From positions 37,858,340 through 37,922,339 of the forward strand of contig OY997642.1 of assembly GCA_963921795.1 (NCBI GenBank): a DNA stretch of 64,000 nucleotides, read 5' to 3'. The notes below the pieces were generated by a model. That model saw nothing but the letters and a program-made list of their open reading frames with translations, was not told where the DNA came from and made no database searches. The DNA is from Nannobrachium achirus (lineage: Eukaryota > Chordata > Actinopteri > Myctophiformes > Myctophidae). The position numbers and the translations under genes were made by a program. Numbering within the stretch: the stretch's first letter is position 1; every line of letters starts with the position of its first letter. Below are positions 293-62,320 of this stretch, piece by piece.

Positions 293-3200
293 CTGAAAAA
301 GAGAAGTCAAATGCCACTATGAGGCCACTTTGAAAGGAAATAACATTAGAACACACACCTGTAGGGACCTGCAGGCTGTAGCCCATCTGTTTGGTTCTTT
401 TTCAATGATATAGATAAAGCCTACTGTTCCACACAACACAGTAATTAGTGTCAAGAGAATTTCATCTCTTTCATCTACTGGCTTAAGCCTAGTTCAGACC
501 AAAGATTAGAGTGATTTCCAATTTCTGTAGCGTCCCACAGCGGAAATAGCCGATCTACAAGGCACCACGGACACAATGCTTTTTTTGTGACATCGTTGTG
601 CGACGGAGCATAAATTAAGCATCAGAGCACCCCTTGTGACAAAACTCTCCAGTCTGAATTACGCCTTACAGATGATCTGAAGAGAAATTGAGATGTTGAG
701 TGCAGAGAGATCTGACCTGTCAGGCTGTTCAGCGGCAGCTCAATCACGCCTTGGTCGATGGATTTATTGTAGTTGAACATGACGGCCAAGGCAAAGCCTC
801 CGTCGTACAGGGAATGGCCTCGGATGATACGAAGGTTGTCCAGGGGGATCCTAGGAGCCGTGTTGAGGGCAATGAGTACATAACCGCCAACTTCCTGAAT
901 TGACTGCAGACAGAGAAATGATCATAAACAATTGGACTAACGTCACTTTGACGTGCTTGTAATTAATTTATGTTTTTCATCATGTTATGCTGCCATAATG
1001 TATGTATGTTCTTGATCAATTAATGCATGGATTCTTACCAAGTCAAATGTCATGAGAAAAAAAATAATAGCAATGCGTATTACTGTACAATTACTGCTTA
1101 CATAAATCATTAGGATTTAACACAAAGTAACCCAACATTACTCTGGTCAATTTTGTCATAATTTTCATCACCAATTTAACTGTAGATTTTGGTCACAAAA
1201 TTAAATAAATATTTAATTTGTTTTATTTCAAGACACAATTGTGCTGCCTTAGCAGACTTGATTTTGAGTTAGATTTATAAAACTAGTTAGGTACACTGCA
1301 AAATCATCAGCATAAAAATAGAACTCTAAGGGTTAGATTAAGACTAGATTACATAACCATTTCTACGAGTGTATTATTTTAGGCACCCTTGCCCATGTGT
1401 CCATGTCCTGACATTTTATAACGATACAATAACCATTATTCACAAGTCGTGTGCTTACAGACAGAGTTCAAACAAGGTTCCAACCAGAGCGATATAAAAA
1501 ACCTCTGCCTTTAATCTTCTGAACTGAAGCAGCGAGAGCTGCGTGTCCTACAAGTACCACAGACTTCAGACCACCAAGCGTGGTTTGCTAAAGCAGGAGA
1601 GTTTGATCTTTTTACCAGCTGTGGGATGAGCACGTCTGCTGTGCAGTCAGGGGCGTCACAAGGGGGGGGGGGGGAGTGGGACTGAGTTACTAGGCCCCAA
1701 GGTAGAGGGGCCTTAATTATTTTATACTTTAACTATTGAAAAATAGCAGATATACAAGCTCACAGCGCAGCACTCAAGCTTATAGATCTGCTATTTTTAA
1801 AAAGTCGTGAAAATGTGTGCAAATCTTTTTAAGCGAACATTTGTAACTCACATTTTGCTTCTGGGGGTGGGTCCCTGAAACAAAATATTTTGAGATGGGG
1901 GTCCGTGGCCAAATACATATCATTTTGGGGGTCCTTCACATGAGAAAGTTTGAGCACCACTGACAGAAACAGGTTTTTCAAAAAACCTTAGAAGGATTTG
2001 AAATATTCATGGCAAAAATGCTGCGCTGTAAGCTTGTATAATCTGCTATTTTTCAATAGTTAAAGCACAACCCCCTCCCCCTATGAAGAACATTCATGGG
2101 GGGCCCGCAGTGAATCCTTGTACCCAGGGCCCAGAATTTGGTGCGACACCCCAGCGTGCAGTAATGCTTTCCGCAGTGATTGAGTCCAGGCTCTCTTACC
2201 CTGAGGAAGGACAGGTCGTGGTAGTCCTCCATGTGGGTGACCTCCAGGTTCTCCAGGACCACGGTGCAGTTGCTGTAGGTCTTCACCATGTTCAGGTAGT
2301 GGTCGTCTTTGGTGCTCAGCAGATTGAACTTGTTGGTGATGCCTTGACACACTGTAGGGCACAGAAGAAGGCAAGTCGTCATCATCGGTGAGAACTTAGA
2401 AGGTTGATGACTTTTAATTCGAAATTAAATGCATTCATCTCGACCATTTTGTCTTCAATCATTTTCATGTACAGTCAAACACTTCTAAGGATAACACCCA
2501 AAAGGTCTTTGCAGTCTTGTTTCCATTGGGCTCCTTGGTATTCAATTCATCAACATATAAAAAATAACACAAACAAACCTATATCATCACAAATATAAAA
2601 CATTTTATGTAGAAAAGGGGGGTCGCTTGTCTGAGGGGTGTATTTTCAGGGCTGTTTTAAAGAAAGCCAATGAACATCACAGCACGTTGTGAGCTTGTAG
2701 ATTGGTTATTTTCAAATAGCCAAAGTATAAAGAAGAATTGAAGTGATTAAACTGTTACTGATTTGGGGCACCCGCTGGCCTACTGGTCCAGGCGCATACC
2801 ACACAGGCTTTGTGTAGCCTGCAGCGGGTCGCTGGTTCGATTCCCGAGCCCAACCAGATTTGCTGCTTGTCACTCCCCATCTCCCTCCCTGTTTCCTGTC
2901 AATAGAGGCATAAAAGCCCCCAAAAAATATCTTAAACTGATACCGATTTAGCTGGGGACCCCCTGGAACAAACTCAGAGATCCCGGGGGGTCCCCGGACC
3001 CTACTTTGAGAACCACTGATCTAAGACACGATTACATCACAAATATTTGGGAATGTGAACTGATGCCAAAAGAACATTTCACCAATGGCCTGACACCAAT
3101 CACAAGCTTACCTCATTTATGTGAGACACTAGCTAAATGAGCGCACAAGGGGGTTTATTTTTTTTAGTTCTTTGTAAAAAAAGGGTCTGTGTAGTCATAG

Positions 3201-6200
3201 CTTGGCCTGCTTTCAGTTGAGAATAGCTGATCTGGATTTCATCTAGAGTGGGAATAGAATCGCAGTGAACTGGAGAGCTTGCTTCAGTTGCTCGCTCATG
3301 AGTCAATGTGAGCAGGCTGTATTTATACTGGCAAAGGGCTGAATATTTCCACTGCTATTCAGGCTAGTTAAAACAACCACTATACAACCAACTTCTCCAA
3401 GTCAAGTCATTTCTGAGAAAAGGACGTGTGTTAGTCGTAGATTCCATGATATTCATCCGTATTATATGTTCACTTTACTAAGCTCCATTCCTTGAGAAGA
3501 AACAGCATTTTTATTGAGAAAGTATACAGAAACAGAAACAGAATAAGAGTCTTACAGCCTTGCTGAAACTGAAAGATACCTCGATTGCTTGACATCACTA
3601 AAAATATCACACCCAGTGTGAAGTGAGCGGTGCTTTTTATGAATTAATTTCATTAAGCGCCCCACGAAGCTTGGGCATTGTGAGCCTGGGCGTACAAACA
3701 GACAGATGTGAGCCAATCAGGTGCTCGGAGTCTCGGGACAAACAGACAAAGGAGGACTGCCCATAAGTCCGAAGGTTCATTAGTCCGAAGGTTCATTAGT
3801 CCGAATTTAGTTAGGGTTACTGAGGTTAAGGTTAGGGTTAGGGTTAGAGTTAGGCATAGTATTCTTAACAAATTCGGACTAATGACCCTTAGGACTAATG
3901 AACCTCCGGACCAATGCCATGGCACCCAGACAAAGCCAGATGCAGGAGCTCAAAAAATGTAAAAAAAAAAAAAAAAAAAACATCTGTGTGCATCTTACTG
4001 CCAACACCAACAAAAAACATCTGTGTGCATCTTACTGCCAACAACAATGACGCTATTGACAGCGTACTACATACGCCTACAGTTATACACTGATAATATT
4101 CAGACTATCTGGTGTTACATAACAAAGCGTTTGGATAAGAATGATAAGTGCCGGGGACATAAGAGGCTCTTTCTCGACGTAAAGCAGGCCATTAAAGCTA
4201 GAATGTGTTTCTTTAGAAAACAGGTCGTCTTCCTGTGGTGTTCCTGGTGCCCTGAGCTGGCCAGACAGGTTCTGACTGGCAGTGGTACTGTGAATGACTT
4301 GCTCAGTCAGCCAGCTAGAATGTTGAGCACTGCCACACACACGCACGCACGCACGCACGCACGCACACACACACACACACACACACACACACACACACAC
4401 ACACACACACACACACACACACACACACACACACACACACACGCATGCGAACACAGGCACAGATGCAGGTAGGCACACGCACACACTCACATGCAGTTAC
4501 ACCTACACATGAACAGACACACACACACACACACACACATTACAAGGGCCCAAATATCTATCAGTCGCTTCTGATGCCATACTGGAAATAACATGTGCGT
4601 CAGTGCATGGCTCCAAACACGTTGGCAGATGCACGAACACACATTCACGGTCAACATACAGTAGGTCACACTCGACTCTTCCATCTGCCATATTACCAAC
4701 AGCGTGAAAATGATGGATTATGAAGCACCTTTCCCTCCAAACAGAGCAACTGCCTATAGTGCAGGAGATTGAAGCTGTTTTGCCTTACACTTGGACAACC
4801 TCATAATCCACACACACACACACACACACACACACACACACACACACACACACACACACACACACACACACACACACACACACACACACACACACACACA
4901 AACAGCCGATCTACAAGCAGCTTGTAGATCTGCTATTAACGAACTGTCTTGGACATACCAGTACAAGGTTTCCACTCGACAACGACGATATACACACTAC
5001 ACAGACACACCCACAAACCCATACACACATCCTACACAGTGCACAAACACACACCCAATGTAACTTAAACTTGATATACTTCCTTTACACCCCCCAGGGG
5101 AGGTCTATACACCAAATCTCTAAATAGACGATCTACAAGTAGATCCGTTATTTTGTGCAGAATGTTCGCCTGCTATGACACGCTCAGAAAAGGGACACTA
5201 TAGGGTTCATGTGGTTAAAGGTTCAATTTGAACCTTCAGGACAAGAGCATTGTTCCTGCTAATGGTTACAAAAACATTGCTGTAATGACTGTTGGTATGC
5301 ATTGCATTCCTCAACATGTTGGCTCATGATGACAGCCCACAGCATGCCGCTATACAGTACTGTAGGGCAGGCTACTCTAGTACCTACGTATAATAAAAGG
5401 ACACACCTAACTTTACATGGGCAGTTACAGCACCTGCACCAAGCATTTCTGAGTTCAGAAAAGGATCAACGATCAACAACATCAATTATACGAACACATT
5501 CCTCAACCGAATTTAGTTAGTCAAAAAACGAAAAACACGAACTCATAAAAATCTTCATCTCGTAGCCCCTATTTTTGGCATGTCACAGTAGGTGAAAATC
5601 ATCGTCAATAAATCTCCTCCAACATTTAAAACAGGGGTCTTCAACAGGGGGTCCGGGACCCCTAGGGGGTCCTCAGAGTTACTACAATGGGTCCTCCAAA
5701 TCTTTGTGAGATAGAAACTTTTTTTCTCTTTTTTTATATCAACCACTTGAACCCCAGCGTCCATATTCCGAGAACTTTAGCCAAAAATAGCAGATCTACA
5801 AGCTCACACTGATTTAAAAAAAGAAAAGAAAAAGGCTTCAACAGGGCTTACTGTAAGTGGTTCATTTTCCTTGTTCCCACAGTGAGGTTTACTAATTTGT
5901 TGTTTTCGGGTTCATGTAAACCAGTGGAGATGGGCATAAAATCGGTGAGAATTAAGGCCCTAACAGCTGTCCCCCTTCCTCCCTCCCTCCCTTCCTATTC
6001 TTCGTCCTCATTAGCTCGCCCCTGAGGGAGCACCCTGACATGAACCCTGCAGCCCAGCAGCACAGGCGGACTGGGGCAGACTGACCGTTTTAATTAGAGC
6101 AGGCATGTAAGATGTAATTAGCGCCATCATTGTTACAGCCGAGAAAATGTAACACAAACAAAATGGTTGTCCTCACAAAACAGGTACAGATATTTTAACC

Positions 6201-61976: not shown

Positions 61977-62154
61977 ATTACTGAAGAAATATTTCCCAGT
62001 CAGTCAAAAATAAGAAACTCATACAAGACACAGCATTCTATATATACGCATACTGTAAACAGACACAGTAGTGTCATAAATAAACTCCCATTAGCATCAA
62101 ATAGCAAGTGTACAATGATCCATTATCATTACCATTCATGTAAGTATTTAAAAT

Positions 62155-62320
62155 TCATTTAGAACGGGTACACATTATTGTGTATCATTATTTTATGCTT
62201 TAACTATTGAAAAATAGCAGATCTACAAGCTCGCAGCGCGGCACTCGGTGCTGCGCTGTGAGCTTGTATATCTGCTATTATTCACTGGTAAAAGCAATCA
62301 ATAATTCTAGGCTAACACAG
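62155..62320. mobile_element. MITE family C, in 3' UTR of the right-hand gene
   Basis: CATTTAGAACGGGTACACATT, then a full palindrome (62213-62279), then AGCAATCAATAATTCTAGG as in 23088-23633. It would place a strong hairpin in the transcript's 3' UTR. Confidence 0.6.

What the first reader, a model, noticed from the sequence alone, without database searches (positions are those of the whole stretch)
1742..62279. A palindromic module shared by otherwise different MITE families
At least thirteen complete hairpins share arms AATAGCAGATCTACAAGCTC / complement: 1742-1795, 6427-6472, 23521-23586, 31327-31393, 33756-33813, 41138-41192, 41451-41503, 46628-46695, 48471-48537, 52779-52845, 53316-53373, 54653-54704, 62213-62279. 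Many half copies also occur (545, 2022, 2690, 4904, 5787, 35843, 37247, 42495, 51577, 62922). The hosts have different terminal repeats (CAGGGGYGTC, CAGAGGTTCTCAACC, TTAACCCATTTAG, TAAGGATGAAAC). Arms are better conserved than flanks, and loops vary (CGCGGCACTCGGTGCCGCG or CAACGCGATGC types). Either one old element seeded many chimeric MITEs, or the palindrome itself spreads or is under selection, for example as a transposase-binding site, fold-back unit or RNA hairpin.
Basis: partly seen in the sequence, partly recalled or inferred. Interest (0 to 1): 0.75.

Follow-up and report, generated by a model that had tools for sequence, protein, structure and literature searches.

The report
Shared hairpin inside different mobile elements
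One 67-base hairpin sits inside many different small mobile elements of this large genome and has stayed nearly unchanged while the DNA around it diverged, which suggests, but does not prove, that it helps such elements to spread.

Summary
The window has 32 arms with up to 3 mismatches; shuffles give 0. The 1.66-Gb genome has 155,994 exact 17-mers of the arm and 82,435 hairpins with perfect inner arms; both controls give 0. The full unit is a palindrome, most often exactly 67 bp (53 of 92).

It lies inside elements with TTAA ends, with 8-bp duplications (hAT-like) and with 2-bp duplications, mostly TA. Part of this variety is one lineage: the TTAA flanks are diverged relatives, and the CAGGGGYGTC hAT elements look like hAT MITEs carrying a TTAA element. 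The TA family and the CAGWGGTTCTCAACC host are not explained that way.

Palindromes mostly cluster by host family (36.8 of 42, shuffled 12.1; group D does not), so I see early capture and descent, not current spreading. Variants shared between copies are 3.4 times rarer in arms than in adjacent flank; private changes are only 1.3 times rarer. Stem pairs covary. This points to constraint on elements while they were mobile.

I read it as a captured, constrained cis-acting hairpin. Function, binding factor and autonomous partner are not shown.

The parts
1648..2154 (+). hAT-like MITE CAGGGGCGTC...; hairpin at 1742-1795 and a degraded second module near 2002-2042
   Evidence: ends and 8-bp flanks TGTGCAGT/CGTGCAGT; aligns with 40995-41594
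1742..1795 (.). hairpin module, centre shortened
4901..4988 (-). TA-family remnant: short hairpin 4901-4937 plus terminal repeat ending at 4988
5786..5805 (+). half copy with flank of the TTAACCACTTGAACCC family
6244..6595 (+). hAT-like MITE CAGAGGTTCTCAACC...; degraded hairpin at 6427-6472
   Evidence: flanks CTATAGGC on both sides, exact
23091..23629 (.). TTAACCCATTTAG-type element; hairpin 23521-23587
   Evidence: flanks CTTA/TTAA, so one end decayed
30938..31397 (.). CAGGGGTGTC hAT-like element, one end lost; half module at 31066 interrupted by telomere-like repeats, hairpin 31327-31393
   Evidence: alignment with 41134-41595; sequence
33756..33813 (.). hairpin; right flank similar to that of 46628
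   Evidence: alignment 33749-33993 with 46621-46884
40993..41594 (.). CAGGGGTGTT/CAGGGGCGTC hAT-like MITE with two hairpins (41138-41191, 41451-41502); a TTAACCCATTTAG end lies between the hAT end and the first hairpin
   Evidence: flanks do not match (5 mismatches)
46628..46694 (.). 67-bp hairpin in a host with a GTGGTTCCCAAACG end on its left
48413..48655 (.). TTAA|CCCATTTAG element; hairpin 48471-48537
   Evidence: flanks TTAA/TAAA
52779..52845 (.). 67-bp hairpin; same host type as 6244-6595; carries a symmetric change in both arms
   Evidence: alignment 52739-52942 with 6386-6600
53187..53604 (.). probable host of hairpin 53316-53373 between TAAGGATGAAAC and GTCTCATCCCTA; duplication not established
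54653..54704 (.). degraded hairpin
62213..62279 (.). 67-bp hairpin with similar flanks on both sides
   Evidence: inverted repeat I7
62921..62940 (-). half copy with flank of the TTAACCACTTGAACCC family

Best explanation
An old palindrome of 67 bp (32 pairs, 3-base loop) is a cis-acting part of non-autonomous DNA transposons in this genome. Its home is probably a lineage of TTAA-ended, piggyBac-like MITEs. It also reached hAT-like MITEs (in the CAGGGGYGTC family by nesting of a TTAA element inside a hAT MITE) and a family with 2-bp, mostly TA, duplications. Each family then carried its copy by descent. While the elements were mobile, both the sequence GATCTACAAGCTCA and the match of the two arms were kept; after insertion copies decay nearly like their flanks. 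The likeliest role is a pair of head-to-head protein-binding sites, or a hairpin or cruciform, that helps the element to be mobilised or kept whichever transposase moves it. Shown: abundance, structure, hosts, family-wise descent, constraint on shared variants, covariation. Inferred: piggyBac origin, route of capture, any function.
For: Abundance. Hosts of three duplication classes carry it (details and biases in the full report). TTAA-family flanks are mutually similar. Palindromes mostly group by host family: 36.8 of 42 versus 12.1 in shuffles, maximum 22.2. Shared variants 51 of 2334 arm cells versus 172 of 2306 adjacent flank cells; singletons 62 versus 82. Covariation on 19 chosen hairpins: 15 of 32 pairs change on both sides, 35 cells versus 10.6 shuffled, 0 of 500 shuffles as high; slid versions reach 11 cells at most. 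Terminal repeats of the TA family have a hairpin just inside in 9 of 19 places and outside in 0 (expected 0.17 per side). piggyBac transposases with open frames are plentiful.
Against: No autonomous element with these ends was shown: module arms (up to 4 mismatches) lie in 3 of 5 stretches upstream and 1 of 9 downstream of piggyBac transposase domains, 4 of 14 against about 4.3 expected from background density (expectation is my arithmetic). TTAA and TA are their own complements, so they could be part of the terminal repeat rather than duplications, and TTAA was in the search motif. Singletons are also somewhat rarer in arms (z -1.8; -2.4 outside CpG-type sites), so some effect on single copies or from selection of rows is not excluded. 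Group D palindromes are as far apart within (15.2) as to other groups (16.5). In the TA family the 30-base terminal repeat, which should be constrained, shows more shared variants (0.079 and 0.026) than the arms. No binding factor is known.
Confidence: 0.5

Rival explanations
1. Hitchhiking only: a TTAA MITE with a palindrome inserted into other MITEs, which then multiplied. The palindrome has no function and its likeness across families reflects recent nesting.
For: The CAGGGGYGTC elements contain TTAA-type cores, one with a TTAACCCATTTAG end still between hAT end and hairpin; hAT and TTAA flanks are similar.
Against: Flanks of the same copies carry 3.4 times more shared variants. TA-family hairpins have no TTAA end beside them. 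Stem pairs covary.
Confidence: 0.2
2. Templated arm-to-arm correction: polymerase or repair copies one arm onto the other, so palindromes stay symmetric without selection.
For: Rare arm states recur in the partner arm in 22 of 129 cases, 1.9 expected; outermost bases also change in step between families.
Against: It explains symmetry, not the low between-family variation of GATCTACAAGCTCA nor the deficit of shared variants. Only 14 of 92 hairpins have perfectly matching outer arms. The rare states may be subfamily markers, not single events.
Confidence: 0.15
3. The hairpin is itself mobile or converts other hairpins, spreading independently of its hosts.
For: It occurs in many contexts: 7 of 92 hairpins had neither flank assigned; group D is not coherent.
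Against: Families keep their own version; 126 of 135 copies found by flank alone carry it; I saw no duplication at its own borders.
Confidence: 0.07
4. It is kept as an RNA hairpin, for example a source of small RNAs or a processing signal.
For: Very stable RNA fold, -55 kcal/mol, z -13.8.
Against: The DNA strand folds as distinctly (z -12.6). No Rfam family reached its gathering score in the window. No expression data were available.
Confidence: 0.08

Closest known systems
Highly conserved domains of SINEs (V, CORE), and V inside the MITE MER6 (PMC6887750; abstract and outline seen)
   Same: A conserved internal piece shared by otherwise different non-autonomous elements; in MER6 it crossed into a DNA transposon.
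   Different: Here the piece is a palindrome and is shared among DNA transposons with three kinds of ends; no SINE link was seen.
Subterminal palindromes of piggyBac-type ends bound by the cysteine-rich domain (PMC11707139; passages seen)
   Same: Palindromic internal sites of TTAA elements bound by transposase dimers; this genome has many piggyBac transposases.
   Different: Those are about 19 bp or shorter and belong to one transposase; this one is 67 bp and also lies in hAT-like and TA-type elements.
Fold-back and stem-loop MITEs such as Angel of teleosts (recalled; search listed nothing)
   Same: Small palindromic elements at high copy number in vertebrates.
   Different: In those the whole element is the palindrome; here a shared centre sits in unrelated bodies.
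T2-MITE / Kolobok of Xenopus (PMC6004289; passages seen)
   Same: TTAA-targeted MITEs with many subfamilies and long life.
   Different: Kolobok ends begin with RR (AGGRR in T2); these begin CCA or CCC.

Membership tests
piggyBac-type MITE (TTAACCACTT and TTAACCCATT groups) | TTAA target-site duplication | tested here: inconclusive
   TTAACCACTT group: 7 listed (6 distinct), all with TTAA at both ends within 1 mismatch. TTAACCCATT group: 5 of 7 listed (4 of 6 distinct) within 1 mismatch. TTAA was in the motif and is its own complement, so duplication and terminal repeat cannot be told apart.
piggyBac-type MITE (TTAACCACTT and TTAACCCATT groups) | Autonomous element with the same ends and a PF13843 transposase | tested here: inconclusive
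   116 domains scored; flanking stretches of 5 and 9 of them show no excess of the module, and element ends were not located.
Kolobok | Termini beginning RR next to TTAA | tested here: not met
   Elements of both TTAA groups begin C, mostly CC; RR rule from PMC6004289 passages.
hAT MITE | 8-bp target-site duplication with CAG-type ends | tested here: met
   CAGGGGYGTC: 3 of 10 listed pairs within 1 mismatch (one of the 10, L027, is a false pairing). CAGWGGTTCTCAACC: 1 of 2, exact CTATAGGC. The other pairs show decayed or no duplication.
Tc1/mariner-like MITE (TCGTCGTTGTCGGG family) | TA target-site duplication | tested here: inconclusive
   11 of 11 pairs have identical 2-bp flanks: 9 TA, 1 TT, 1 TC. 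TA is its own complement; TT and TC do not fit a strict TA rule.
Conserved-domain non-autonomous elements (works like) | Internal piece more conserved than the rest across families | tested here: met

The most novel reading that the evidence does not exclude
A transposase-independent amplification module: a sequence-specific palindrome, bound by a host or shared factor, that raises the spread of DNA transposons of at least three superfamilies, so that MITE families of this genome succeeded largely because they captured it.
Probability: 0.27. Interest if true: 0.85.

Novelty: new variant of a known kind. Interest (0 to 1): 0.62.

Why it matters
If a short piece of DNA helps elements with different transposases, success of MITEs would depend on more than their ends, and the piece could be tested directly in transposition assays. 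It would be for DNA transposons what conserved central domains are for SINEs. It also gives a huge natural sample (tens of thousands of near-perfect hairpins) for studying how palindromes persist and break in a genome.

Tried and rejected
Snap-back birth of MITEs (one end plus arm copied back through the hairpin, making both halves alike): rejected for the TA family, whose two interiors are not alike beyond 11 bases beside the hairpin and the terminal repeat (score -23, shuffled mean -21.6). Over all hairpins 13 of 92 had left and right flanks more alike than the 99% level of random genomic pairs, but own pairs were no more alike on average (9.7) than pairs of different copies (9.0).

Module as part of piggyBac transposase genes: 3 of 5 upstream stretches (4 of 5 at 5 mismatches) looked promising, 1 of 9 downstream did not; together no excess.

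Related DNA elsewhere: 0 viral contigs, 0 phage records, 1 genome contig (L009), a chance match in a bacterial contig without a palindrome. Literature: no paper holds the arm letters searched; listings showed no report of such a module, but many titles were seen only as listings.

Uninformative: DNA search with a TA-family flank found nothing because common words are skipped. Not answered; the 17-mer, hairpin and inner-arm patterns were answered on repeats, the TTAACCACTTGAACCC pattern never was.
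Full report
WHAT IS THERE. The 13 hairpins of the finding are in the window and far above chance (32 arms with up to 3 mismatches, shuffles 0). In the window's own genome (G000, 1,658,514,493 bases, 564 contigs) the 17-mer AGCAGATCTACAAGCTC occurs 77,977 + 78,017 times, reversed control 0. 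Hairpins with perfect 17-base arms number 7,834 and with perfect 11-base inner arms 82,435, controls 0. I read 20 stretches of 10 kb from contigs C1-C7 as a sample not chosen for the module; with the window this is 264 kb, some of it N. It holds 184 arms with up to 4 mismatches. Of the 71 full hairpins found in 288 kb, 63 lie in the 264 kb, which extrapolates to about 0.4 million per genome (my arithmetic; only C1-C7 were sampled).

ANATOMY. Of 92 distinct hairpins (98 before identical contexts were dropped; arms up to 5 mismatches; 18 further loci were fetched because they match the arm, so the set is partly selected, and L001-L003 are near duplicates) 53 are exactly 67 bp: 32 pairs and a 3-base loop. 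The strand folds as RNA at -55 kcal/mol (z -13.8) and as DNA at -38.4 (z -12.6). In 19 hairpins that I chose to represent flank families, the invariant columns fall mainly within GATCTACAAGCTCA and its mirror. Outer and inner stem positions change in step: 15 of 32 pairs with changes on both sides, 35 cells versus 10.6 in shuffles (0 of 500), slid versions at most 11 cells. The structure was derived from these sequences and they are related, so the controls are indicative. 54 of 608 cells (8.9%) are not paired. Rare arm states recur in the partner arm in 22 of 129 cases, 1.9 expected.

HOSTS. Pairs of ends were sought in all loci held. (a) TTAA|CCACTTNARCC: 7 listed, 6 distinct (L038 and L039 overlap), all with arms; only L012, L019 and L021 are from the unselected sample, and L012 has unlike ends. 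(b) TTAA|CCCATTTAG: 7 listed, 6 distinct (L006 and L030 overlap), all with arms; 5 from the unselected sample. (c) CAGGGGYGTC: 10 listed, all with arms and all from the unselected sample; L027 5879-7175 is a false pairing; 3 have 8-bp flanks within 1 mismatch (ATTCTTGA, GAGACATG, TGTGCAGT/CGTGCAGT). (d) CAGWGGTTCTCAACC: 2 listed, both with arms, one with exact CTATAGGC. (e) TCGTCGTTGTCGGG...: 11 listed, all with at least one arm, 10 from the unselected sample, 2-bp flanks identical in 11 (9 TA, 1 TT, 1 TC); by the stricter pattern 10 of 11 carry the palindrome. TTAA and TA are their own complements, so only the 8-bp cases and TT/TC speak directly for duplications. As a genome-scale check, 19 exact TA-family terminal repeats on C1 up to 2.28 Mb have a hairpin within 200 bases on the inside in 9 cases and on the outside in 0, 0.17 expected per side (places). 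Half of the larger repeat groups of the sample involve the module: in 11 of 23 groups with at least 4 members more than half lie within 130 bases of an arm (random placement 22%); some groups are parts of one family, and others clearly lack it.

ARE THE HOSTS ONE FAMILY? Partly. Flank references of the TTAA groups and of the CAGGGGYGTC group resemble one another at or above the best of 1,500 random genomic stretches. So the CAGGGGYGTC elements look like hAT MITEs that swallowed a TTAA element; in 40993-41594 a TTAACCCATTTAG end lies between hAT end and hairpin. Other flank types (TA-family, Ain, D2, G, H) do not align with these; 30 of 181 flanks matched none of my references. The references were picked from the same data.

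DESCENT. For 42 of 53 hairpins of 67 bp both flanks named the same family; the nearest other palindrome lies in the same family for 36.8, against 12.1 (sd 2.7, maximum 22.2) in 2,000 shuffles. Within-family distances are 3.9 (A), 2.9 (E), 7.1 (G) against 15-17 between families; group D is not coherent (15.2 within, 16.5 to others) and probably mixes lineages.

CONSTRAINT. Copies were found by flank only: 9 of 135 flank hits lack an arm within 7 mismatches, several with visible remnants. For the rest, nine flank sets were aligned (sets overlap, so counts are not independent). Shared variants: arms 51 of 2334 cells, flank bases 1-20 172 of 2306, flank beyond 522 of 4381. Singletons: 62, 82, 267 in the same cells. 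Arms versus adjacent flank: shared z -8.4, singletons z -1.8; outside CpG-type sites shared z -7.2, singletons z -2.4. I read the shared variants as changes made while subfamilies were still moving and singletons mainly as decay after insertion. The constraint then acts mainly on mobile lineages, as for a working part of a transposon. The modest deficit of singletons may come from the 7-mismatch filter or from some real effect on single copies. In eight aligned TA-family elements arms had 4 singletons in 300 cells and interiors 33 in 1029; the terminal repeats, meant as a positive control, had more shared variants than the arms, so that control did not behave simply.

MECHANISM. Constraint on sequence plus matched arms plus fixed length suggests two head-to-head binding sites or a hairpin/cruciform. 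piggyBac-type transposases bind subterminal palindromes with their cysteine-rich domains (PMC11707139, passages), and this genome has many piggyBac transposase domains, 116 scored of 952 candidates. That would fit the TTAA groups, but not hAT-like and TA-type hosts unless the factor is shared. Flanks of 14 transposase copies show no excess of the module. Function therefore remains inference.

KNOWN RELATIVES. Conserved domains shared by different SINEs, one of which entered the MITE MER6 (PMC6887750, abstract and outline), are the closest idea. I found no report of a palindrome shared by DNA transposons of several superfamilies in the searches; the library lacks most subscription papers, and Repbase or Dfam could not be searched.

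VERDICT. Real, abundant, ancient and constrained; partly one lineage, partly capture by other superfamilies; not currently spreading by itself as far as seen.

Noticed in passing
window 31020-31066: Telomere-like repeats (about four and a half CCCTAA units) sit where the centre of a hairpin should be, in the element at 30938-31397; possibly a repaired break at the palindrome.
   Followed up: no
G000 C2:71.34-71.84 Mb: Cluster of many piggyBac transposase domains of different sequence, most with open frames, within 0.5 Mb.
   Followed up: no
G000 C1:469826-469952: Three overlapping hairpins in tandem with a period of 43 bases.
   Followed up: no
window 35993-36010: A hAT-like end (CAGGGGTTCCCAAACG) directly follows half a hairpin arm, as if inserted into it.
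   Followed up: no
L042:308-406: A TA-family copy whose palindrome extends to about 49-base arms, longer than the usual 33.
   Followed up: partly
L021:2386-2438, L026:6178-6236; L027:6657-6724, L015:382-449, window 545: Hairpins in two further possible host families with similar flanks (TTGGTTGCA...GAGCAACAC; GTCGCACAGCGG...GCGCGTAAC), seen by eye.
   Followed up: no
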